DNA of 64,000 nt from Actinomadura alba (GTDB lineage: Bacteria; Actinomycetota; Actinomycetes; Streptosporangiales; Streptosporangiaceae): NCBI RefSeq assembly GCF_014323705.1, contig NZ_JABVEC010000017.1, positions 1 through 64,000 on the forward strand, in the 5' to 3' direction. This document shows positions 18,522-30,373 of the stretch, piece by piece. Position 1 is the stretch's first letter. Each line of letters opens with the position of its first letter. The notes under the pieces were generated by a model. The model was given only the letters and a program-made list of their open reading frames with translations, searched no databases and was not told the DNA's origin. Made by a program: the position numbers and the translations under genes.

Positions 18522-19205
18522 TCAGACGATCTCGACCTCGGCGTTGATCACGCCCCGGCGCGCCCCCAGCACCGCCTCGGCGGCGGTGACCAGCTGGGCG
18601 AGCCGGAACACCTCGGTGCGGTGGAACGGCGGCGCGCCGGTGCGCGCGACGACCAGTACCAGCTCACCGTCGGCGATCGGTGCGATGGTGTACTGCGTTC
18701 CGTCCTTGGCGGTGAAGGACCGCGGCCGGACCGGATTCACGTCGGGCACGTCGATGTCGCCGAATGCGCCGACGCTGGAGTGCAGGACGACCGCGTCGTC
18801 CGGCCGCCGTTCGCCGCCCTCGGCGGCGGGCCGCCCGGGACGCAGCAGCCCGGCCCAGTCGGCGCTGAGGATGGCGGGGACGGCGTCGGTCAAGATGACG
18901 AGCCCGCCGTCGGGGTTGGCCGCGAGCTGCCCGATCAGTGCCGCGTCCGGGAAGGCACCCTGCGGCTCGGCCGTCGGCCACACCCCGATGATCTCGACGC
19001 CGGGGATGGATGCGAGCCCGTCACAGAGCCGCTCGATGCCCGCCCCCGACGGCCAGGCCACCGTGAGGTCGTCGAGGGCCCGGCCGACGTCTCGCTCCAG
19101 GACGACCATCTGCACCACGTCGGCGCCGGCGGCGCCCAATGTTCTGGCGACCTTGCCCAGCGATCCCGGCCGGTCCGGTAGCCGAACGCGAACTCTCAGC
19201 AACAT
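18522..19205 (-). CDS. ACT-domain protein
   Basis: 227-residue cytoplasmic protein. The N-terminal 75 residues form an ACT domain (LLRVRVRLPDRPGSLGKVARTLGAAGADV, split here as DRPGSLGKVARTL followed by the second strand VVQMVVLERD). The remainder is a conserved actinobacterial region with no catalytic motif I recognise. Such proteins are thought to sense amino acids. The ATG at 19205 lies next to an AT-rich spacer. It is single and divergent from the GrpE/Hsp70 set; a link to that set is not shown. Confidence 0.8.
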   Translation of the reverse strand: MLLRVRVRLPDRPGSLGKVARTLGAAGADVVQMVVLERDVGRALDDLTVAWPSGAGIERLCDGLASIPGVEIIGVWPTAEPQGAFPDAALIGQLAANPDGGLVILTDAVPAILSADWAGLLRPGRPAAEGGERRPDDAVVLHSSVGAFGDIDVPDVNPVRPRSFTAKDGTQYTIAPIADGELVLVVARTGAPPFHRTEVFRLAQLVTAAEAVLGARRGVINAEVEIV

Positions 19206-19614: not shown

Positions 19615-20202
19615 GTGTCGAGTGCACAGGATCCGCCTGCCGAAGAGGGGCCCGCCGACATCGACGGGGTCATGGCGGAGCTCGGCGAGATCGGCTCGGC
19701 GCTCGCCGAGCTCACCCGGATGGTCGGCCGCGACAGCGAGCGCGCCGCGCACCGCGAAGCGATCATCGACCGCTTGCACGAGGACAACCAACTGCTGCGC
19801 CGAGGCGAGCTGCAGGCCATGTACGAGCCGGTGCGCGCCGCCCTTTACCGCCTGCATGACATGACCAAGCGCGAGTCCGAGCGCTGGGCGGCGCCGGAGC
19901 CGCCCGATCCGGTCCACATCGCGCCGCTGCTGGCCGCCGTCACCGACGAGATCGCCGAGGCGCTCGCCCGCTCCGGCGTCGAGCGCTTCACCGTCGAGCC
20001 CGGCGACCTCTACGACCCCGCGCGGCACCGGCCGGTCGCGACCGAACCGGTCGACCGGCCCGAACTCGACGGCACCGTCGTCAGCGCCCGTACGGACGGT
20101 TTCACCCGTTGTGAACGGGTCGTACGGCGCGCCGAGGTCGTCGTCGCTCGGTTCAAGTCCGACGACCGTGAGAACATCTCGCCTGAACCCGACCCCGAGT
20201 AG
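19615..20202 (+). CDS. GrpE-like nucleotide exchange factor
   Basis: 195-residue protein. Residues 1-75 are acidic and coiled-coil forming (DIDGVMAELGEIGSALAEL, then REAIIDRLHEDNQLLRRGEL). The C-terminal part matches the GrpE beta domain: LDGTVVSARTDGFTRCERVVRRAEVVVAR. It should catalyse ADP release from the Hsp70 encoded nine bases downstream. I chose the GTG at 19615; an in-frame ATG at 19564 would add 17 residues that do not look conserved. The middle (ERWAAPEPPDPVHIAPLLAAVTDE region) differs from housekeeping GrpE, so this is a dedicated partner and not the general GrpE. Confidence 0.82.
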   Translation: MSSAQDPPAEEGPADIDGVMAELGEIGSALAELTRMVGRDSERAAHREAIIDRLHEDNQLLRRGELQAMYEPVRAALYRLHDMTKRESERWAAPEPPDPVHIAPLLAAVTDEIAEALARSGVERFTVEPGDLYDPARHRPVATEPVDRPELDGTVVSARTDGFTRCERVVRRAEVVVARFKSDDRENISPEPDPE

Positions 20203-20211
20203 GTGGAAAAG

Positions 20212-21795
20212 ATGGCTGTCTACGGGATCGACCTGGGCACGACGTACTCGTGCATCGCCTCCATCGACGAAGTCGGCCGCCCCACGGTCCTGCGCAACCT
20301 CGAGGGCACCGACACCACACCGTCCGTCGTCTACTTCGAGTCGGGCGACAACGTCGTCGTCGGCGCCGCGGCCAAGGACACCGCCGTACTCGAACCGGAC
20401 AACGTCGTCAGCCTGATCAAACGGGACATGGGCCGCGACCTCACCCGGCCGGTCCACGGCTTCGAGTACACCCCCGAGGAACTGTCGGCGTTCATCCTGC
20501 TCAAGCTGGCCACCGACGCACGCACCACCACCGGCGAGGACGCCCGTGACGTCGTCGTCACGGTCCCCGCCTACTTCGGCGCCGCCGAGCGCGACGCCAC
20601 CCGCAAGGCCGGCCGCATCGCCGGGCTGAACGTCATCGACATCATCTCCGAGCCGATCGCCGCCGCCATCACCTATGGCGTGCTCAACCCGGAGCAGGAC
20701 CGCACGATCCTCGTGTACGACCTCGGCGGCGGCACCTTCGACACCACGGTCATCGCACTCAAGGGCGGCCACATCGAGGTGGTCTGCACCGACGGCGACC
20801 ACGAGCTCGGCGGTGCCGACTGGGACGAGCGCCTGGTGGAGTACCTCGCCGAGCGCTTCCGAGCCGAGCACCCCGACGCGGGCGATCCGCTCGACGACAA
20901 GCAGACCGAGCAGCAGCTCCGCCGCGACGCCGAGGAGGCCAAGAAGGCGCTGACCTCCCGTACCCAGCACACCGTGCGGGTGATGCACGAGGGCCGGGTC
21001 GCCGCCGTCGAGGTCTCCAGGGAGAAGTTCGAGGAGATCACCAAGGACCTGCTGGACCGTACGGTGGAGATCACCGGCCGCACCCTCGCCACCGCGAGCG
21101 AGAAGGGCGTCTCCGACTACGACGACCTCGTGCTCGTCGGCGGGTCGACGAAGATGCCCGCGGTGGCCGCCCGGCTCGAGACCGAACTCGGCCTGCCGCC
21201 CAAGCTGCAGGACCCCGACCTCGCGGTGGCCAAGGGCGCCGCCCTCTACGCCTTCGAGGAGACGTTCCGCAGGCTTCTGCTGCAGGGCGCAGAGGAGCGG
21301 GCCGAGGAGATGGCCAGCCGGGCCGGGCTCTCCGCCGAGCAGCAGCGTCAGATCGCCAACCGCCAGATCAAGACGGTGGCCTCGCGCGCCTTCGGCATCG
21401 TGGTGCTCGACCGGGCCAACAACCTCGAGCAGGTCGCCCATCTGGTGCACGCCAACGACGAGCTGCCCGCGGCCCGCACCGAGGACTTCTTCACGGTCAA
21501 CGACGACCAGACCGCCGCCGACGTGCGGGTGATGGAACAGGCGGGTGCCGCCGAGTCGGCGGAGGTGACCGACAACACCGAGATCGCCACCGGGGTCATC
21601 AAGGTGCCGCCGGGCAAGAAGGCGGGCTGGCCCATCGAGGTCACGTTCGCGCTCGACGCCTCCGGCCTTCTGCACGTCACCGCAGTCGAGAAGGAGACCG
21701 GCGAGCGGCTCGAGCTGACGGTCGACGTGGGCGGCATGTCCGAAGAGGACGTCGAGCGCTCCCGCGCGGCCCTGTCCCGCGTCCAGGTGAGCTGA
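20212..21795 (+). CDS. short Hsp70-family ATPase chaperone
   Basis: 527-residue Hsp70. The ATPase domain is complete: phosphate-1 GIDLGTTYSCIA, connect-1, phosphate-2 VYDLGGGTFDTTVI and adenosine motif LVLVGGSTKMPAV. The substrate-binding beta-sandwich follows (FGIVVLDR to LLHVTAVEKETGERLELTV), but the sequence ends soon after, so the long helical lid of DnaK is missing. ATG at 20212 with AGGTGG five bases upstream. No DnaJ gene is present in the cluster. Together with the GrpE-like protein it forms a dedicated Hsp70 switch, presumably acting on the products of the next four genes. Confidence 0.92.
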   Translation: MAVYGIDLGTTYSCIASIDEVGRPTVLRNLEGTDTTPSVVYFESGDNVVVGAAAKDTAVLEPDNVVSLIKRDMGRDLTRPVHGFEYTPEELSAFILLKLATDARTTTGEDARDVVVTVPAYFGAAERDATRKAGRIAGLNVIDIISEPIAAAITYGVLNPEQDRTILVYDLGGGTFDTTVIALKGGHIEVVCTDGDHELGGADWDERLVEYLAERFRAEHPDAGDPLDDKQTEQQLRRDAEEAKKALTSRTQHTVRVMHEGRVAAVEVSREKFEEITKDLLDRTVEITGRTLATASEKGVSDYDDLVLVGGSTKMPAVAARLETELGLPPKLQDPDLAVAKGAALYAFEETFRRLLLQGAEERAEEMASRAGLSAEQQRQIANRQIKTVASRAFGIVVLDRANNLEQVAHLVHANDELPAARTEDFFTVNDDQTAADVRVMEQAGAAESAEVTDNTEIATGVIKVPPGKKAGWPIEVTFALDASGLLHVTAVEKETGERLELTVDVGGMSEEDVERSRAALSRVQVS

Positions 21796-21799
21796 GTCC

Positions 21800-22161
21800 A
21801 TGGCCTCGCTCCGCTCGGCGGTTCGCGGGCGCCTCGTCGCGCGGTCTTCCCTCGTCACGTGCTCGCTCGTACCTCGCTCCGCGCGCTCCTCAGTCCAGAC
21901 CGCGCGCGCCCGCTCAGAGCCCATGGCCTCGCTCCGCTCGGCGGTTCGCGGGCGCCTCGTCGCGCGGTCTTCCCTCGTCACGTGCTCGCTCGTACCTCGC
22001 TCCGCGCGCTCCTCAGTCCAGACCGCGCGCGCCCGCTCAGAGCCCATGGCCTCGCTCCGCTCGGCGGTTCGCGGGCGCCTCGTCGCGCGGTCTTCCCTCG
22101 TCACGTGCTCGCTCGTACCTCGCTCCGCGCGCTCCTCAGTCCAGACCGCGCGCGCCCGCTC
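21800..22161. repeat. 123-bp tandem repeat, three identical copies
   Basis: Three head-to-tail copies begin at 21800, 21923 and 22046. The first two are identical along their length and the third matches them until about 22161. The unit is 41 codons, so all six frames stay open or closed together, and apparent long reading frames across it are artefacts. It contains several short inverted elements (gcgcggtct/agaccgcgc; gagcgg/ccgctc). It fills almost the whole gap between the Hsp70 gene and the Fn3-like gene. Confidence 0.97.
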
Positions 22162-22190
22162 ACGGGGGCATATTCGATAAGGGGATCGGC

Positions 22191-24863
22191 CTGAACTTCG
22201 ACGACCACTACAAGCGGGAGGTCCTCGAACCGGCGCGCAACGCCGGGGACCAGCCGCCAGAGGATCTGCGGGTGCGCTACCAGCTGCGCGACCCGCTGTC
22301 CCCTCAGGACGTCGCGGCTCAGGTCAAGCTGGTGCGGCAGTGCTGGCGCCGGGCCCGCGGCCAGCTGAAGTACCGCAAGCTCATCGACCGGCTCGAAGCC
22401 GAGCACCGCGAGCTCGCGCCCGTCTTCGCGGCCGCCGAGCGCGGTGACGCCGGCCCGTTGCGCGCCCGGCTGCGCGGCGGCACGGAGCGCACGGAGCGCC
22501 GGCGGTCCGACGCGAGGGCACGCCTGCTCGACGCCGCCGGGCCGCTGCGGCTGCTGTCGCCGGGCGACCTGGAGGCCATCGCGCGGTCCAGCGGCTTCGC
22601 CCGCGCAGAGCTGGAGTCGTTCCTGACGACCGAACGCGTCGAGGTGCGCGAACCCGACCCGCTCCCGGCGTCCGCGCCGTACCAGGGTTATCTCAAGGCG
22701 CGCGAGTCCCTCGCCGTGCTGGGTCACCGGCATCTCGCCGACTTCCTGTTCGGCGCGCGGCTCACCGGTCCGATGCGGGTGATGGGCGGTTTCCAGGCGC
22801 CCGGAGTGCGGCTGGACGCATCGGTGGTGGCGTCCGTGTCCGCCGACTGGGCCCGGCGGCCGAGGGACACCAGCTCCACCAACGCCGAGACGGTACTGGC
22901 TGCGCTGCGCTCGGCCCTCGGCGGCGACACCGGCGACGGCGCGCGACTGGCCGAACTGGTCCGGTACGACCTCGTGGACCGGCTGCGGGAACGGCACCGG
23001 CAGCGCGCCTCCGAACGGGCGCTTCTTCGGTACGCCGTCGACGGCCTCGGCATCGAGCCGGGTGAGGCCAGGCGCCTGGTCTTCGCCGTGCTGAGAGAGA
23101 GCGGCCCGGCGGGCGGCCTGGCCGGGCGGCTGCGTGAGCTGCTCGACGCCGGCGCGGTGCACGCCGCGGCCCTGCTCGCCGACTCGGCCCTCCCCGCCGC
23201 GGGCGAGGCCGAACGGGCCGGTGCGCAGAGCGCGGCACGGCGGGAGGCCGAGAGCGCCGAGGTACTCGCGGCCGAGGCGCGTGAGCGGCTCTCCACCGCC
23301 GTCAGGCTGCGCGATGAGGCCGTGGAATGCCCCGACCCGGACCGGGCGTGGCGGCTGCTCGCCGACGCCCTGCATCTGGTCCGCGACCTGCCCGGTGCGG
23401 AAGATCACCAGCGACGGCTTCCGCCGCGGCCGGTCGCGGAGGCCGCCGCCACCGTCGACGCCGGTGGCACGGCCGTGCGCCTGAGCTGGAGCGAGTCACC
23501 GTCGAAGGTGGGTGACATCGGCTACCGCGTCGTACGCCGGCGCGGCCGGCCACCGCGCGACTCGGCGGACGGCGAGATCATCGCGAGCAGCGGCACGGGC
23601 GCCTACGACGGCCGCCCGCCGGTCAACGTGCCGCTCTTCTACGCGATCATCGCCCGGCGGGGCGACACGGCCGCGGCCCCCGCGGTGGCCGGTCCCGTCC
23701 TGGTACGGCCGGAACCGGCCGAGGTGGAGCTCGTGGCCGGCGACGGGGTCGTCACGGGCCGGTGGCGGTGCCCGCCCGCGGCCGCCCGGGTGCTCGTCAC
23801 CCGCGACGAGGCCTCGGTGGACCTGCCGAGGGTGGTGGTCCGGGCCGACCGTGAGGGCTTCCGCGACGCGGTCAGGAACGGGACGACCTACCACTATCGC
23901 GTGGCCGCCGTCTATCTCGACGAGTCCGGCCGTGAGGTGACGACCCCGGGTGTACGGGTGTCCGCCAGCCCGAGTGCGCCGCCCGAGCCCGTGGCCGGGT
24001 TCACGCTGGAGCCCGATCCGGGCGAGGCCGGCCGGCTGCTCCTGGGCTTCGACCCGCCCCGGCGCGGCACCACCGAGTTCGTCCTGCTCGCCGGTCCGCC
24101 GCCCTGGCCGCACGGCACCGTCGTGCCGCTGGCCGAGGTGCGCCGGGCGGGCCGGGCCGTACCGGCGACGCCGACCGCGAACGGGCTCGCGGTACGTCCC
24201 GGCGCGAGCGGGGTGCTGCTCGCCGTCACCGTCTCGGGCGAGGCGGCCGCGGTCGGGACTCACCGCCGGCACGTGAACCTGCCGCCGCCGAGCAATGTCG
24301 TCGCGCGGCGCCACGGGGCGACGGTGCACGTCGGTTTCGACTGGCCGCCCGACGTCGCCGAGGTCGAGCTCACCTACCAGGTGGGCGGCTCCGATCCACG
24401 CCGAACTCTGATCACCCGGGCCGCCTACGAGGCGCAGGGAGGGGTGCGGCTGGCCGCGCCCGAGACCCGGCAGGTCGACGTACTCGTGGCCTCGAGTGGC
24501 ATGGGCGGCGAGGCCCGCGTCGTCGGCGCGCCGGTACCCGTGATGGTGTCCCCGCGATCCCTCGTGGACTACGACCTGCGCCTGACCGGGCCGCCCTGGC
24601 GCCGCACCCTCGTGGTGGCGCTCCGGTCCGAGGAGCCGGTGCGCGTCCCGCGCCTGCTGCTCGTGCTGCGCGAGGGCCGCGTGATGCCACAGCACCCGGG
24701 CGACGGAGATACCGTCGCGTCCTGGGACGAACTGGAGGTTCCGGTGGAGCTGTCGTTGCCGCATCCCCGGCGGGCCGGGTCGTTCTGGCTGCGCTGCTTC
24801 GCCGCCGATGATGAGATCGAGCTGAGCGACCCACCGGTCCGCCGCCTCCAGATGAAGGGCTGA
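22191..24863 (+). CDS. large protein with Fn3-like domains, component of the Hsp70/GTPase set
   Basis: About 890 residues. The N-terminal half (1-415) is alpha-helical and charged, rich in Arg/Glu/Ala (ERAGAQSAARREAESAEVLA), with no enzyme motif. The second half holds three or four beta-sandwich repeats of fibronectin-III type, e.g. GTAVRLSWSESPSKVGDIGYR, RVLVTRDEASVDLP and TTYHYRVAAVYLDESG. There is no signal peptide or membrane segment, so it is cytosolic and probably a scaffold. The best start is a CTG at 22191 with AAGGGGA upstream (NFDDHYKREVLEPAR follows); a GTG at 22272 also has a GAGGA. Its stop is 2 bp from the GTPase gene. Confidence 0.75.
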   Translation: MNFDDHYKREVLEPARNAGDQPPEDLRVRYQLRDPLSPQDVAAQVKLVRQCWRRARGQLKYRKLIDRLEAEHRELAPVFAAAERGDAGPLRARLRGGTERTERRRSDARARLLDAAGPLRLLSPGDLEAIARSSGFARAELESFLTTERVEVREPDPLPASAPYQGYLKARESLAVLGHRHLADFLFGARLTGPMRVMGGFQAPGVRLDASVVASVSADWARRPRDTSSTNAETVLAALRSALGGDTGDGARLAELVRYDLVDRLRERHRQRASERALLRYAVDGLGIEPGEARRLVFAVLRESGPAGGLAGRLRELLDAGAVHAAALLADSALPAAGEAERAGAQSAARREAESAEVLAAEARERLSTAVRLRDEAVECPDPDRAWRLLADALHLVRDLPGAEDHQRRLPPRPVAEAAATVDAGGTAVRLSWSESPSKVGDIGYRVVRRRGRPPRDSADGEIIASSGTGAYDGRPPVNVPLFYAIIARRGDTAAAPAVAGPVLVRPEPAEVELVAGDGVVTGRWRCPPAAARVLVTRDEASVDLPRVVVRADREGFRDAVRNGTTYHYRVAAVYLDESGREVTTPGVRVSASPSAPPEPVAGFTLEPDPGEAGRLLLGFDPPRRGTTEFVLLAGPPPWPHGTVVPLAEVRRAGRAVPATPTANGLAVRPGASGVLLAVTVSGEAAAVGTHRRHVNLPPPSNVVARRHGATVHVGFDWPPDVAEVELTYQVGGSDPRRTLITRAAYEAQGGVRLAAPETRQVDVLVASSGMGGEARVVGAPVPVMVSPRSLVDYDLRLTGPPWRRTLVVALRSEEPVRVPRLLLVLREGRVMPQHPGDGDTVASWDELEVPVELSLPHPRRAGSFWLRCFAADDEIELSDPPVRRLQMKG

Positions 24864-24865
24864 GG

Positions 24866-26086
24866 ATGCGCGCGATCACCTGTCCGTACTGCTTCGCGGC
24901 GGTGCCCGCCCAGCGGATCGAGTTCCGCTGCCTCGGGCGGGCGGGTCGCGGGCCGGGCTGCGAGCCGGTGCTCGACCGCAGGCTCGCCGACTACACCGGG
25001 TCGGCCGCGGCCGCCTCGCTCCCACCGGTGTTCTCCGCGTCCGGCCGACGGGGCCGGGCCGCCTGCCCGGCCTGCGGTAAGCCCACCGGACGGCGGGTGT
25101 GCCCGGAGTGCCACAACCCCCTGCCGTCGGCCTACTGCGACACCCCGGGCCGGATCGTCGCGCTCGTCGGGGCCAAGAACGCGGGCAAGAGCACCTACAT
25201 CGCGGTGCTGCTGCACGAGCTGATGAACCGGATCGGCACCGAGCTCGACACCTCGCTGGTGGCCTGCGACGACCGCACCATCGACCGCTACAAGCGGGAC
25301 TTCGCGCGGCCACTGTACGACGAGCGGCGGCTGCTGCCGACCACCGCCAGCGCGGCGACGACGCCGCGCGAGCCACTGGTCTACCTCCTCACCCGGACGC
25401 GGCGCCCCCGCTTCGGACGGCTGAACCTCGGCGGCGGCAACGACGCGCTCACGCTGGTACTGTTCGACACCGCAGGCGAGGACCTGCGCAGCCGCGACGT
25501 GCGCGACCTGCACCTGCGCTATCTCGAGGCGGCCGACGCCGTCATCTTCCTCGTCGATCCGCTGGAGCTGCCCGGTGCCCGGGCGGCCCTGGTCGGCGGG
25601 GCACTGCCGGTCACCGCCGACGATCCCGACAGCGAGCCGATCAACGTGATCGCCCGGGTCACCGAGGCGCTCCAGGCGCGTCGTTCGGGCGACCGGCTGC
25701 GGATCCCGGTCGCGGTCGCCCTCACCAAGATCGACGCGCTGCAGCCCTCCTTCGCCCGCCAGTCGGCGCTGCACCGCTCCCGGCAGAGCCAGGGCGCCCT
25801 CGACCTCGACGACCGCGAGGCGGTCGACGAGCAGGTCCGGGCGCTGCTGCACGAGTGGCAGGCCGGACAGCTCGACCGCTACCTGCGCCAGCACTACCTG
25901 GAGTACGGGTTCTTCGGGCTGTCCGCGCTGGGGGGCATGCCGGGCGACGGCCGGGTCGGCGCGGGCGGCGTGCAGCCCTATCGGGCGGAGGATCCGCTGC
26001 TGTGGCTGCTGCACCGGTTCGGGATGCTCGACGGCGTCCGCGGCGCGGCGGCGAGCCCCTGGCCGGCGGCCGGAAGGAACGCGTGA
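24866..26086 (+). CDS. zinc-ribbon GTPase, soluble (double-GTPase family type)
   Basis: 406-residue protein. Residues 1-90 carry cysteine pairs of zinc-ribbon type (CPYC, CPAC, CPEC). A P-loop GTPase domain follows: G1 GAKNAGKST (about 101-109), G3 DTAGED (about 200) and G4 TKID (about 287), then an SALGG segment that may be G5. The NKxD-type TKID supports GTP over ATP. From memory it resembles the Pfam family named DO-GTPase2; I could not check this. No membrane helix is seen, unlike the paralogue at the end of the set. Gene spacing of 2-3 bp on both sides indicates cotranslation and a shared function. Confidence 0.82.
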   Translation: MRAITCPYCFAAVPAQRIEFRCLGRAGRGPGCEPVLDRRLADYTGSAAAASLPPVFSASGRRGRAACPACGKPTGRRVCPECHNPLPSAYCDTPGRIVALVGAKNAGKSTYIAVLLHELMNRIGTELDTSLVACDDRTIDRYKRDFARPLYDERRLLPTTASAATTPREPLVYLLTRTRRPRFGRLNLGGGNDALTLVLFDTAGEDLRSRDVRDLHLRYLEAADAVIFLVDPLELPGARAALVGGALPVTADDPDSEPINVIARVTEALQARRSGDRLRIPVAVALTKIDALQPSFARQSALHRSRQSQGALDLDDREAVDEQVRALLHEWQAGQLDRYLRQHYLEYGFFGLSALGGMPGDGRVGAGGVQPYRAEDPLLWLLHRFGMLDGVRGAAASPWPAAGRNA

Positions 26087-26089
26087 GCC

Positions 26090-28603
26090 GTGGCCTGGCA
26101 GCTGCACTACACCTCCGCGAAGTCCGGCCCGGACGGCCGGGCCGGCTTCCAGTTCGTCGCGGAGACCCCGGGGCTGCCGCCGGGCCTGCGCACCGCCGTG
26201 TCACCGCTCATGGTCTACCGGCCGCCACCGCACGCCCCGCTCTCCCCGAGCACCGACGAGCTGGCGCGGTTCCCGGTGGGGCTGGCCTACGACCGGCTGG
26301 ACGAGCGGCCCGTGCTGGTCCGGTGCCGCTACCTCGGCCGGGACTACTCCGGGCGGTACGGCAACTTCTTCGCGCACGCGGTGGTGGCCGACACCGCTGA
26401 GCTCGAGGGGCTGCGCCCGATGGAGCTCTGGCACGCCCCGCTGTGGGACGACGCCCCCGCGAGCGGGCTACTCCCGGCCCTCGACGAGCTCTCCCCCGGT
26501 GACGGCTTCGAACCCGACGCGCTCGCCGACTGGCTGGCCGACCAGTGGGACGTCGCGTCGACCTATGACCTGCTGGCCCGGCTGATCGACGCCGTCACCA
26601 CCGTCCTCGGGCGCGACCATGGCCGGATCATACTGGTCGCCGACGACACCGAGCTCATCGCGCGGTGGATCGCGGTCGTCTCGTACTCCCTGCCGGTGCC
26701 CGCCGCCGCGCTGATGTCGTTCATCACCTACAGCGCCGATCCGGGGGTGGCGCCGCAGCGCGTCGTCGGCACCACGCCCGATGTGTGGGAGACGACCCGC
26801 CACGACGGCCCCGTCTTCTTCGTCGACGCCCCGCACGCCATGGGCGGCCGCGTCGAGTACCACCGCGACACGGACCACCGCCTCGAGGACCACCGCGACG
26901 CGGGCGACCGCGCCGCACCGGCCGGCGAGTCACCGCGCGCCGCCCGGGGCCGCTACGCGCGGACGGCCGCGCAGTGCTGGCGCGATCTCAACTTCGCGGG
27001 GCTGGACGCGATGGGCGAGCTCGCCGACGCCGCGCTCCGCTCCAAGATCACGGCCCCGCTCGACGTCGTGCTCGACCGGGCCGCGGCACTGCTCGCGCTG
27101 TGCCAGGGCGACGAGACGGTGACGCCGGGCGAGGAGGCCGAGGCCGCCACGCTGCTGAGCCGGCACGGCGCCGACGTGCCCGGATGGGTCTGGCGCGACC
27201 TCACGCCGACGCTCCCCGGCATGGGCTTCGACCTGGCCGTTGCGATCATGAACTGGGCGGTGCAGGATCCGCACCTCGCCGAGCGATGCGCGGCCCGCTG
27301 TGTCGTGCTGGCGCTTCGCGACCCCGCCCTGCGCTCCCGGCTGCCCGACCTCACCCTGCCGGAACCCGCCCGCGACCGGCTCACCCCCATCGTCGAGGAG
27401 GCGCTGCTCACGGCACCCGACCTCACCGAGGTCGCGCTGATCGCCGGGCTGCTGGAGCGCGTCGGAGCCGACGTGCCCGGCCCCGGTGTCGAAGCGGCCG
27501 CCGTCGGATGCGCCCGGCGCGGCACCGCCGACCTGACCGCCGCCGTACGCCTCGTGCCCATGGCGGTGCGCGAGCCGCTCATCGCGGGCGCGCTCGCCGG
27601 GCTCGCCGCGACCGACGAGAGCACCCGTGCCGCGGTGCTCACCGACGCCGCCTGTGATCTGCTGTACGCGCGGAAGGCCCCGCGCCCGGCCAGGGCCCCG
27701 GTCGCGGACGCCGACACGACCCCGGACGCGCACACGGACGCGGCCCCGGCGGCGGATCCGGTCCCCGGCCCCGCACCGGCACCGCCGTGGCTGCCGGGAG
27801 CCGTCGCGCTGGACGTGCTGCGATCGGTCGGGCGGCGGCGCAGGGAACGGCGGATCGAGGTCACGCGGGTCCTGCTCGAACTCGCCGAACCCCGGTCAGC
27901 GGTCGAGGACGTACTGCACGCCGTGTGGGCCGAGCCGCCCACCGCCCGTGAGTGCCTCGCGGTCATCGACTCTTTCGGCGCCGCGCTCCCCCACTTCCGC
28001 TGCCTGTACGACCTGCCGTCGCGGGTGTTCACCCGGCTGGCCGAGAGCGGAGACGACCTCGACGCGCCGGACACCCTCGACCTCGCCCGGCGTACGCGCG
28101 AGGCGCTGACCGCCGACGACCGCCCGGCCGCCGACGCGGCCCTCGTCCAGGCCTATGCCTCGGCGGTGCGGGCCGGCGATGCCGCGGCGGCCGCCCTCGG
28201 GCTCGCCGACATCGACGTGGTGACCGGGGCGTCCACGCCGCTGACCGACTGCGTCGTCCGCTGCGCGGCGCAGCGCCTCGCGCTGCGAGCGCCACGGTTC
28301 CGCGCGGCGGTGCTGGCCGAGGCGCCCGCACCGGCCCGCGACCGGCTGGTGGCCGAGTGGACCGCCGGCAAGCACAGCAAGGCCGCGCGCAACGAGCTCA
28401 TGGAGGTCGCGATCCGGCTGCGCCGCCTCAGCGTGTTCCCCGAGGCGCTCGAGGCGTGGGCGGCCGGGCAGGCCGCCGGCCGGCTGTCGTATCTCCAGCT
28501 CGACGCCTGCTTCCGCCACGACCGCGACCTGCGGGCCGGGCTCAGGGAACTGCGCAGCCGGACTCTGGCGGCGCAGACCCGGCGTCAGCGGCGCGGGAGG
28601 TGA
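26090..28603 (+). CDS. GTPase-associated protein 1 (GAP1)-like
   Basis: 837-residue cytosolic protein. The N-terminus (QLHYTSAKSGPDGRAGFQFV, then GRYGNFFAHAVV about residue 90) matches what I recall as the GAP1-N2 domain, which is found only beside such GTPases. The middle (about 160-260, with GRIILVADDTELIARWIAVV) and the helical C-terminal half (about 400-830, ARM/HEAT-like leucine-rich helices) correspond to the GAP1-M and GAP1-C regions. An Ala/Pro/Asp linker lies near residue 550. No catalytic motif is visible. The GTG start follows GGAAGGA. It probably bridges or regulates the flanking GTPases; its biochemical role is unknown. Confidence 0.78.
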   Translation: MAWQLHYTSAKSGPDGRAGFQFVAETPGLPPGLRTAVSPLMVYRPPPHAPLSPSTDELARFPVGLAYDRLDERPVLVRCRYLGRDYSGRYGNFFAHAVVADTAELEGLRPMELWHAPLWDDAPASGLLPALDELSPGDGFEPDALADWLADQWDVASTYDLLARLIDAVTTVLGRDHGRIILVADDTELIARWIAVVSYSLPVPAAALMSFITYSADPGVAPQRVVGTTPDVWETTRHDGPVFFVDAPHAMGGRVEYHRDTDHRLEDHRDAGDRAAPAGESPRAARGRYARTAAQCWRDLNFAGLDAMGELADAALRSKITAPLDVVLDRAAALLALCQGDETVTPGEEAEAATLLSRHGADVPGWVWRDLTPTLPGMGFDLAVAIMNWAVQDPHLAERCAARCVVLALRDPALRSRLPDLTLPEPARDRLTPIVEEALLTAPDLTEVALIAGLLERVGADVPGPGVEAAAVGCARRGTADLTAAVRLVPMAVREPLIAGALAGLAATDESTRAAVLTDAACDLLYARKAPRPARAPVADADTTPDAHTDAAPAADPVPGPAPAPPWLPGAVALDVLRSVGRRRRERRIEVTRVLLELAEPRSAVEDVLHAVWAEPPTARECLAVIDSFGAALPHFRCLYDLPSRVFTRLAESGDDLDAPDTLDLARRTREALTADDRPAADAALVQAYASAVRAGDAAAAALGLADIDVVTGASTPLTDCVVRCAAQRLALRAPRFRAAVLAEAPAPARDRLVAEWTAGKHSKAARNELMEVAIRLRRLSVFPEALEAWAAGQAAGRLSYLQLDACFRHDRDLRAGLRELRSRTLAAQTRRQRRGR

Positions 28604-28606
28604 CGA

Positions 28607-30373
28607 GTGCAGGCCGTCTTCGTCGCGCTGCTGGTGGTCGTGTGGCTGGGTGCCATGTGGGTCGGGTTCGTGTTCGTCTTCCCTGTCGTGTTCTCCGTCT
28701 CGCTCGTCGCGGCCGCCGCGTGCGCGATCGGCTACTACTACGTGTACGCCTGCCGGGCCCTGGTGCCCGCCCCGGCCAAGGGCCTCGCACCGGTCGCGCC
28801 GCCCGGCTCGGCCCGTTCGCAGGGCGCCCCGGTGCCCGATCCGGCCTACCGGCACTACCTGCTGGCGCAGGTCTGGCGGGACCTGTGGGCGATCACCCGC
28901 GGCATCATGCCCAAGATCACTATGACCGCCACCGTCGCGCTCACGACCACCACGAGAACGCTCGTGTCGGGGATCTGGGGCTTCTTCACCTTCCCGCTCT
29001 GGCTGGCGATCTGCTCGGGCATCGTGCTCGCCGCCGTCCCGGCCGCTCTGCTCGGCGCGCTGCTCACCCTGCTGTACGCGGCGGTGGTGGCGGTCGGGCT
29101 GGCCGGATGGCTCGTCTGCGTGCTGGTGCTCGGCATCGTCGAACGGGTGTTCATGGCGTACGGGCGGATCCTGCAGACCTGTCCCCACCCGTTCTGCTAC
29201 GAGAAGGTCGCCCTGCCGGTGTACGAGTGCCCGGCCTGCGGCGAGCGGCATCGCAGGCTCGCCCCGAACTCCTTCGGCGCGGTCAGGCACGTGTGCCGGT
29301 GCGGCGCCCGGCTGCCGACCACCATCCCGCTCGGCCGGTTCCGGCTCACGGCCTACTGCCCCCACTGCAACGGGCGGCTGCCGGAGCGGATCGGCCGGGT
29401 GCGGGTCGAGCCACTGCCCTTCGTCGGCGGCCCGGCCGCGGGCAAGACCACGTTCATGTTCCTGGCGATCCGCGCGCTGCACGCTCGCGCCCGGGCCGCG
29501 CACGGCACCGTGACCTTCGTCGAGCGGCGGCACGCCCAGGCCTACGCCGGAGCGGTACAGGAGTTCCAACGCGGAGGGCGGCTGGCCAAGACCGGTCCGG
29601 AGCTGCCTCTCGCCACGATGGTCGACGTCGACCTGCCCGGCGCCGGCCACCGGATCCTCTACCTGTTCGACCCGGCCGGTGAGCACTTCACCGGTGCCAC
29701 CCTGGTCGAGTCGCTGCGCTATCTCGACCACGGCGAGGCACTGCTGTTCGTGATGGACCCGTTCGCGCTTCCGCAGGTGCGGCGGACCCTGACCGGCGAT
29801 GAGAACGAACTGGTCGAGCAGGCGGTCGCCTCGTCCGACGAGGATCCCGCCGACACCCTGCAGCGCGTGCTCAACGAGCTGCGATCGCGGCGCGACCGGG
29901 GCCGCCAGAAGCGCGTCGCGGTGGTCGTCACCAAGACCGACCTGCTGGCCCACACCATCGTCGGGCGCCACCTGGAGCACCCGGAGTCGGGTGCCGCGGT
30001 CCGCGACTGGCTGGAGGGCCTCGGGCTCGGCAACTCCATCCGGGCCCTCGACCAGCTCGCCGCCGAAGTGCGCTACTTCGGCTCGGGCCTGACGACCGAA
30101 CCGGCCCTGGTCGCCGAACTGCTCGGCTGGGTCACCGGGCTGCCGGTCGGCGACGGCATCGCGGCTCCGGCGGATACCGACCCCGAACTGCCGGGGCCCG
30201 AACTGCCGGGCACCGCCCCGCTGCGCGCGCCGTGGGAGGCCCGCGGCCGCGACGCCGCACTGGTGCCCGCGAGCTACCAGGCCGGCCGCTGGGCCATCCT
30301 CGCCGGCATGTCGGTCCTCACCATCGCCACCCTGGTGAGCACGGCCGCCTACGCCCTACCGCTGATCCGCTGA
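28607..30373 (+). CDS. membrane-anchored zinc-ribbon GTPase (double-GTPase family type)
   Basis: 588-residue membrane GTPase. Two hydrophobic helices at the N-terminus (about 3-48) and two more near 125-180 are followed by cytosolic zinc ribbons (CPHPFC, CPAC, CRC, CPHC; about 187-262). The GTPase domain has G1 GGPAAGKTT (about 273), G3 DPAGE (about 354) and G4 TKTD (about 442). A final helix lies at about 563-585. GGGAGG sits six bases before the GTG. It is paralogous to the soluble GTPase two genes upstream but tethered to the membrane. It probably marks the site where the complex assembles or acts. It ends the operon. Confidence 0.82.
   Translation: MQAVFVALLVVVWLGAMWVGFVFVFPVVFSVSLVAAAACAIGYYYVYACRALVPAPAKGLAPVAPPGSARSQGAPVPDPAYRHYLLAQVWRDLWAITRGIMPKITMTATVALTTTTRTLVSGIWGFFTFPLWLAICSGIVLAAVPAALLGALLTLLYAAVVAVGLAGWLVCVLVLGIVERVFMAYGRILQTCPHPFCYEKVALPVYECPACGERHRRLAPNSFGAVRHVCRCGARLPTTIPLGRFRLTAYCPHCNGRLPERIGRVRVEPLPFVGGPAAGKTTFMFLAIRALHARARAAHGTVTFVERRHAQAYAGAVQEFQRGGRLAKTGPELPLATMVDVDLPGAGHRILYLFDPAGEHFTGATLVESLRYLDHGEALLFVMDPFALPQVRRTLTGDENELVEQAVASSDEDPADTLQRVLNELRSRRDRGRQKRVAVVVTKTDLLAHTIVGRHLEHPESGAAVRDWLEGLGLGNSIRALDQLAAEVRYFGSGLTTEPALVAELLGWVTGLPVGDGIAAPADTDPELPGPELPGTAPLRAPWEARGRDAALVPASYQAGRWAILAGMSVLTIATLVSTAAYALPLIR

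What the first reader, a model, noticed from the sequence alone, without database searches (positions are those of the whole stretch)
19615..30373. Six-gene GrpE/Hsp70/Fn3/GTPase/GAP1/GTPase system
A dedicated GrpE-like factor and short Hsp70 are followed by a large Fn3-like scaffold, a soluble zinc-ribbon GTPase, a GAP1-like protein and a membrane zinc-ribbon GTPase. The last four genes are 2-3 bp apart. From memory, GAP1 and double-GTPase domains were proposed by comparative genomics as parts of NTP-dependent conflict systems, but I know of no demonstrated activity. Inference: the Hsp70 pair remodels the GTPase complex, and the membrane GTPase decides where it acts.
Basis: partly seen in the sequence, partly recalled or inferred. 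Interest (0 to 1): 0.9.

Follow-up and report, generated by a model that had tools for sequence, protein, structure and literature searches.

The report
Chaperone-coupled GTPase operon, J-protein-free Hsp70
A six-gene operon in a soil actinomycete joins a small dedicated Hsp70 chaperone to two GTP-binding switch proteins; the operon type was already predicted in 2020, but its Hsp70 turns out to have lost the site where J-proteins act and always sits beside an undescribed helper domain, which may be a new way to drive an Hsp70.

Summary
Six genes (GrpE, short Hsp70, FN3 scaffold, soluble DO-GTPase2, GAP1-N2/M protein, membrane DO-GTPase2) lie where stated and match those families. The same order and strand recurs in 75 of 100 neighbourhoods fetched. 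It is not a new system: Kaur et al. 2020 (PMC7159879) describe this HSP70/GrpE theme of GAP1-N2 systems. No activity is demonstrated, here or in the papers I searched. What looks new is inside it. (1) The Hsp70 keeps its ATPase residues but has no lid. The arginine that J-domains engage (DnaK R167) is Asp, Asn or Gly in every relative examined, and the linker region is 41-70 residues (23-33 in Hsp70s with a J-protein gene nearby). (2) The scaffold starts with a conserved helical domain that matches no J-domain and no Pfam family; wherever this Hsp70 was examined, that domain is encoded next door. (3) Chaperone and GTPase modules separate: Hsp70-scaffold pairs occur in genomes without GAP1-N2, and GTPase-scaffold sets without Hsp70. 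(4) The Hsp70 is in 65/65 species of one genus, under purifying selection, often at a conserved site, without an effector gene. That fits core envelope-proximal stress signalling better than a patchy phage-defence island. The mechanism remains inference.

The parts
19615..20202 (+). GrpE-like nucleotide exchange factor, 195 aa (C-terminal beta domain recognisable; divergent N-terminus)
   Evidence: PF01025 2.9e-10 over aa 108-178; all NCBIfam GrpE equivalogs far below cut-off
20212..21795 (+). short Hsp70 (ATG 20212 preferred to GTG 20203): intact ATPase motifs, DnaK-R167 position = Asp, 50 residues in the linker region, SBD-beta present, no lid
   Evidence: PF00012 2.4e-109; residue counts and linker lengths
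21794..22162 (.). three head-to-tail 123-bp copies of a dispersed intergenic repeat between genes 2 and 3
   Evidence: TRF; 40 matches listed in the own genome
22191..24863 (+). scaffold, 890 aa: conserved N-terminal helical domain (aa 1-85), further helical/TPR-like region to about aa 405, Fn3-like beta domains to the end; probable CTG start
   Evidence: AF2 mean pLDDT 93.4 for the first 419 aa; alignments; Fn3 evidence
24866..26086 (+). soluble DO-GTPase2 with N-terminal zinc-ribbon cysteines, G1 GAKNAGKST, G3 DTAGE, G4 TKID
   Evidence: PF19993 2.9e-13; motif conservation
26090..28603 (+). GAP1 protein: GAP1-N2 (aa 2-133), GAP1-M (148-238), ~540-aa C-terminal alpha-solenoid, the fastest-evolving part
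   Evidence: PF20013 4.4e-42, PF20014 2e-20; AF2 pLDDT 90.8; Foldseek best hits are alpha-solenoids, E about 0.01; dN/dS
28607..30373 (+). membrane DO-GTPase2: hydrophobic N-terminal segments, CxxC pairs, GTPase domain, C-terminal TM
   Evidence: PF19993 5.9e-20; hydropathy and motifs
18522..19205 (-). divergent ACT-domain gene; not part of the system, marks the conserved upstream border
   Evidence: PF01842 2.7e-6; homologue in 35 of 69 A-type neighbourhoods

Best explanation
A member of the GAP1-N2 double-GTPase systems, HSP70/GrpE theme, acting most likely as an envelope-proximal, NTP-gated stress or quality-control relay rather than a classical phage-defence island. Proposed working: the scaffold is the hub. 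Its N-terminal domain holds the short Hsp70, whose ATP cycle is reset by the dedicated GrpE and does not use a J-protein; its TPR/Fn3 part samples a target. The two zinc-ribbon GTPases, one soluble and one in the membrane, form the switch, and GAP1 binds them through its N/M domains while its solenoid reads out partner proteins. Shown: families, gene order, conservation, Hsp70 sequence changes, module separability, selection pattern. Inferred: every physical contact, the role of the N-domain, the signal and the output.
For: Families. Same order and strand in 75/100 neighbourhoods; pairwise distances of the six proteins correlate at r=0.76-0.95 over 64 loci. ATPase and GTPase motifs are essentially invariant, so NTP cycling is probably kept. 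Hsp70: R167 position is D in 70/70 A-type, N or D in 15/15 B-type, D/N/G in the 23 further N-domain-linked loci examined; 14/14 Hsp70s with a J-protein gene nearby (HMM hit, or annotated J protein/HscB) keep R and have 23-33 residues in the linker region versus 41-70. Scaffold: no DnaJ Pfam hit in 69 members at E<=1, hhalign against J-domains 0.5% probability with 100% for the control. Core-like: Hsp70 in 65/65 species of g291, GAP1-N2 in 62/65, ACT gene next door in 35/69 loci, dN/dS 0.05-0.13 for Hsp70 and at most 0.51 for GAP1-C in six pairs. Membrane GTPase.
Against: No experiment. The N-domain persists in Nocardiopsis-like loci whose genomes show no such Hsp70 (L126, L129, L132), so it cannot be only an Hsp70 partner. 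The N-domain-linked Hsp70s are one clade (support 0.74), so R167 loss in many loci is largely one event; the archaeal Haloplanus plasmid Hsp70 (D at this position, 94-residue linker region, GrpE next door, no J found) is a single possible independent case. J-proteins that could act in trans exist in the genome, and R167H/R167A DnaK variants can work with altered J-domains (PMC7289447, PMC13012618). Kaur et al. say the FNIII protein is typically fused to DnaJ or TPR; I could not read their supplement, so their 'DnaJ' may be this domain or other members. Patchy occurrence outside the family (8/396 phylum genomes) is compatible with a conflict role.
Confidence: 0.4

Rival explanations
1. Anti-invader conflict system as proposed by Kaur et al.: FNIII part senses the invader, DO-GTPases set a threshold, Hsp70 and partners form assemblies that contain or kill.
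For: Published comparative-genomics argument with association to multicellular habit (PMC7159879); patchy outside the family; variable companions in other themes.
Against: Near-universal in genus g291 (65/65 by Hsp70) and in every listed g288, g239, g253 and g299 genome; conserved flanking gene in half the loci; no effector gene attached; FN3 half does not consistently evolve faster than the N half, GAP1-C is fastest, all dN/dS below 1; only weak chance-level PADLOC hits.
Confidence: 0.3
2. Polar growth, sporulation or cell-wall machinery of filamentous actinomycetes: a cytoskeleton-like GTPase assembly at the membrane whose build-up is chaperoned.
For: Membrane GTPase; sister themes carry tubulins and wall-binding domains, and the systems associate with multicellular habit (PMC7159879).
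Against: No link to cell-division or wall genes in the window and no downstream gene conserved across all the genera; absent from more than half the genomes of the same family.
Confidence: 0.2
3. Canonical DnaK-type assistance: host DnaJ proteins in trans drive the short Hsp70, which folds the GTPases; the R167 change is a neutral or compensated oddity.
For: Own genome has DnaJ-domain genes; dedicated GrpE retained; compensated R167 variants are known (PMC13012618).
Against: R167, linker and lid all changed and kept so in every clade member examined; Hsp70 very strongly conserved (81% mean identity); no J-domain gene seen next to any N-domain locus of the class survey.
Confidence: 0.1

Closest known systems
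[quoted passage not shown] 2020, eLife, PMC7159879)
   Same: HSP70 + GrpE + FNIII protein + zinc-ribbon DO-GTPase + GAP1-N2/M + TM DO-GTPase; actinobacteria; about 14% of GAP1-N2 neighbourhoods in that paper
   Different: Scaffold here has no detectable J-domain; FN3 half not hypervariable, GAP1-C is; chaperone and GTPase modules separable; vertically kept in whole genera
DnaK-DnaJ-GrpE chaperone machine
   Same: Hsp70 with conserved ATPase motifs plus dedicated GrpE
   Different: R167 to D/N/G, expanded linker region, no lid, no J-protein gene in the operon
Short Hsp70-GrpE-(J+TPR) plasmid locus of Rhodococcus pseudokoreensis (L160)
   Same: Short Hsp70, GrpE and TPR protein side by side
   Different: Keeps R167, an LDV-type linker and a DnaJ domain; no scaffold N-domain, GTPase or GAP1
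Hsp70-scaffold pairs of Tsukamurella, Nocardia farcinica and family f90 (L158, L159, L195-L208, L210-L214)
   Same: Same Hsp70 clade and same scaffold N-domain, adjacent; GrpE often beside them
   Different: No DO-GTPase or GAP1 seen in these loci; 15 of 25 such genomes have no GAP1-N2 at all

Membership tests
GAP1-N2 DO-GTPase system | GAP1-N2 and GAP1-M domains in one protein | tested here: met
   4.4e-42 and 2e-20, both above gathering
GAP1-N2 DO-GTPase system | One or two DO-GTPases with N-terminal zinc ribbons and Walker B Glu (DxxGE) | tested here: met
   PF19993 above gathering for both; DTAGE / DPAGE and CxxC conserved
[quoted passage not shown]
   Simple hydropathy gives three N-terminal peaks and one C-terminal; reading the sequence by eye suggests four plus one
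GAP1-N2 DO-GTPase system | FNIII-repeat protein in the operon | tested here: met
   Fn3-like PDB hits E=0.0013 and PF00041 in 4/28 homologues; weak for the window protein itself
GAP1-N2 system, HSP70 theme | HSP70 and GrpE genes present | tested here: met
   75/100 neighbourhoods
GAP1-N2 system, HSP70 theme | FNIII protein fused to DnaJ domain or TPR ('typically') | tested here: inconclusive
   No DnaJ in 69 members at E<=1, hhalign 0.5%; weak TPR-like matches around aa 320-395
Conflict (anti-invader) system | Variable effector component | tested here: not met
   No effector fused or encoded after gene 6; no downstream gene conserved across all the genera
Conflict (anti-invader) system | Protection against phage | not testable with these tools
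   No experiment found in the papers searched
Canonical J-dependent Hsp70 | Arg at DnaK R167 position | tested here: not met
   Asp in window; D/N/G in the whole clade
Canonical J-dependent Hsp70 | Short conserved DVLLLDV-type interdomain linker | tested here: not met
   50 residues in the window versus 23 in own DnaKs
Canonical J-dependent Hsp70 | ATPase residues (phosphate loops, K70, E171, D194/T199) | tested here: met
   invariant in 70 sequences

The most novel reading that the evidence does not exclude
The scaffold's N-terminal domain is a new, non-J class of Hsp70 co-chaperone that drives a lidless Hsp70 clade which has lost the J-docking arginine and linker, and that plugs this Hsp70 either into a membrane GTPase switch or into GTPase-free modules across actinomycetes.
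Probability: 0.3. Interest if true: 0.85.

Novelty: new variant of a known kind. Interest (0 to 1): 0.52.

Why it matters
J-domain proteins are described as obligatory partners of Hsp70s. An Hsp70 clade with an intact ATPase site, its own GrpE, no J-docking arginine and a fixed non-J neighbour would be a natural test of how else the Hsp70 cycle can be driven. It would also give a tractable handle on DO-GTPase/GAP1 systems, which have a published prediction but, in the papers searched here, no biochemistry; and it shows which parts (scaffold as hub, chaperone and GTPase modules as plug-ins) to test separately.

Tried and rejected
J-domain in the scaffold N-terminus: rejected by Pfam on 69 members, HPD inspection and hhalign with a positive control. 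PDB fold match for the scaffold N-terminal 419 aa: none at E<0.001, so no fold name is offered. PDB sequence matches for GAP1: none credible. GAP1-C fold search: only generic alpha-solenoids, TM below 0.3, so no functional analogy is claimed. Hypervariable FN3 sensor: tested by identity profile and dN/dS, not seen in this clade. D481, the third member of the R167 ion-pair network: mixed in both groups, dropped. GAP1 on plasmids: none. Promoters and terminators: none found by consensus; Rfam: none; tRNA: none.
Full report
What is there. Six ORFs on the + strand at 19615-30373 match GrpE, HSP70, nothing (scaffold), DO-GTPase2, GAP1-N2 + GAP1-M, and DO-GTPase2. NCBIfam names none of them above cut-off, and PADLOC-DB gives only weak, chance-level matches. 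The own genome has one GAP1-N2 gene and three housekeeping DnaKs besides this Hsp70. The Fn3 label for gene 3 rests on its C-terminal half: Fn3-like PDB chains at E=0.0013 and PF00041 in 4 of 28 homologues. The start of gene 3 is upstream of GTG 22272, because conserved residues (Y7, V11, D25) lie before it; CTG 22191, preceded by AGGGG, is the position where homologues have ATG or GTG. Genes 2 and 3 are separated by three tandem copies of a 123-bp repeat that is dispersed in the genome.

Is it recurrent? GAP1-N2 occurs in 153 of 343 genomes of the same family and in 8 of 396 of the phylum sample. I fetched 100 GAP1-N2 neighbourhoods, 96 from the family and 4 from the phylum sample. 75 hold all six genes, every one on one strand and in the same order; several of the rest are cut by contig ends. 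A profile of the Hsp70 interdomain region, which canonical DnaKs lack, finds 136 of 343 family genomes; 131 of these also have GAP1-N2, and four of the five exceptions are drafts of 570-970 contigs, the fifth a weak match. In genus g291 the Hsp70 is in 65 of 65 species. Two subtypes exist (A, like the window, and B with Hsp70 scores around 500), sometimes in one genome. Pairwise protein distances of the six genes correlate at r=0.76-0.95 over 64 loci. A divergent ACT-domain gene borders the operon in 35 of 69 A-type loci from several genera: a fixed site, hence mostly vertical descent in that group.

Selection. Mean identity to the window over about 70 orthologues: Hsp70 81%, GTPase 1 70%, GTPase 2 58%, scaffold 55%, GrpE 50%, GAP1 41%; the C-terminal 550 residues of GAP1 are the most variable part. 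In six close pairs dN/dS is 0.05-0.13 for Hsp70, 0.17-0.37 for the scaffold and 0.27-0.51 for GAP1-C; the FN3 half is not consistently faster than the N half. So in this clade the fast part is the GAP1 solenoid, not the FNIII part that Kaur et al. call rapidly evolving.

The Hsp70. Phosphate loops and the K70, E171 and D194/T199 equivalents are invariant in 70 A-type sequences (one contig counted twice). The protein stops after SBD-beta, without the helical lid. At the position of DnaK R167, four residues before E171, it has Asp in 70/70 A-type and Asn or Asp in 15/15 B-type sequences. The NBD-SBD connection is 50 residues in the window and 41-70 in the clade, against 23-25 in the canonical J-partnered Hsp70s I checked and 33 in one short Hsp70 (L160). 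R167 is the arginine that the Asp of the J-domain HPD motif engages; DnaK R167A is non-functional unless DnaJ carries D35N, and simulations with R167D were used to study NBD-SBD contact (PMC7289447, PMC13012618). Controls: own DnaKs keep R and DVLLLDV; 14 of 14 Hsp70s with a J-protein gene close by (by HMM, or annotated J protein or HscB) keep R.

The scaffold. AF2 predicts its first 419 residues as almost entirely helical with mean pLDDT 93.4, but Foldseek finds no PDB match at E<0.001. The first 85 residues hold a motif YxxxVLxPAxxxG..P.DLxxRY...W[RKQ]. No member of 69 matches DnaJ in Pfam even at E<=1 among the families listed; hhalign against J-domains gives 0.5% with a 100% control. My J-domain profile held only four sequences, so this is a modest test on its own. 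Weak TPR-like matches lie near residues 320-395, which agrees with the 'or TPR' in Kaur et al.

Separable modules. A profile of the N-domain finds 51 of 395 genomes of the class, mostly in families f1 and f90. In all 20 loci read from f90, f4 and f109, an Hsp70 of the same clade is adjacent and lacks the arginine (D, N or G); the same holds for Tsukamurella, N. farcinica and one locus from another family of the class (L161). Only two of these 23 (L209 and L161) carry GTPases and GAP1. 15 of 25 such genomes have no GAP1-N2 at all. Conversely, Nocardiopsis-like loci (L126, L129, L132; the genus name is my inference) keep the scaffold N-domain, GTPases and a GAP1-N2 protein but have no such Hsp70 in the locus or genome. 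The scaffold is therefore the common hub and the two NTPase modules plug into it. The natural contrast is the Rhodococcus pseudokoreensis plasmid: short Hsp70 with R167, an LDV-type linker and an adjacent J-TPR protein. A tree puts all N-domain-linked Hsp70s in one clade (support 0.74), so R167 loss there counts as one event; a Haloplanus plasmid Hsp70 with D and a 94-residue linker region beside a GrpE gene lies elsewhere in the tree and may be a second.

GAP1. AF2 (pLDDT 90.8) gives alpha-beta N and M domains and a long alpha-solenoid; Foldseek's best hits are adaptins, beta-catenin and importins at E about 0.01 and TM below 0.3, which supports only the class 'alpha-solenoid'.

Known or new. 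Kaur et al. 2020 describe the HSP70/GrpE theme as about 14% of GAP1-N2 neighbourhoods, with FNIII proteins typically fused to DnaJ or TPR. The window is a member of that predicted kind. In the papers searched, no experiment on DO-GTPase/GAP1 systems was found. The parts I did not find described are the R167/linker change, the non-J N-domain and its constant pairing with this Hsp70, and the separability of the modules. I could not read the paper's supplement, so part of this may be recorded there.

Verdict. Confirmed observation; known kind; a new variant with a testable mechanistic question at its core. Function remains inference.

Noticed in passing
window 21794-22162: Three tandem 123-bp copies of a GC-rich dispersed repeat between hsp70 and the scaffold gene; the own-genome search lists 37 further full or partial matches.
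   Followed up: partly
window 22191-22272: Scaffold gene has no ATG/GTG/TTG start that covers its conserved N-terminus; a CTG start is the best candidate, possibly linked to the repeat array just upstream.
   Followed up: partly
L200, L205: In family f90 a GrpE-Hsp70-scaffold locus without GTPases lies next to a DUF475/TerC gene (L205) or a C-C bond lyase gene (L200), families I recall from Ter stress clusters.
   Followed up: no
L195: A second f90 Hsp70-scaffold pair sits beside polynucleotide phosphorylase and an M16 peptidase, a housekeeping context.
   Followed up: no
L227: Haloarchaeal plasmid Hsp70 with Asp at the R167 position and a 94-residue linker region, next to GrpE, a vWA protein and an AAA ATPase.
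   Followed up: partly
L162 9240-11030, L163 8784-10559: A second Hsp70 of the same family lies some 10-15 kb from B-type operons in two genomes.
   Followed up: no
L126, L129, L132: Nocardiopsis-like systems without Hsp70 have an SGNH/acyltransferase-3 gene upstream of an oversized scaffold.
   Followed up: no
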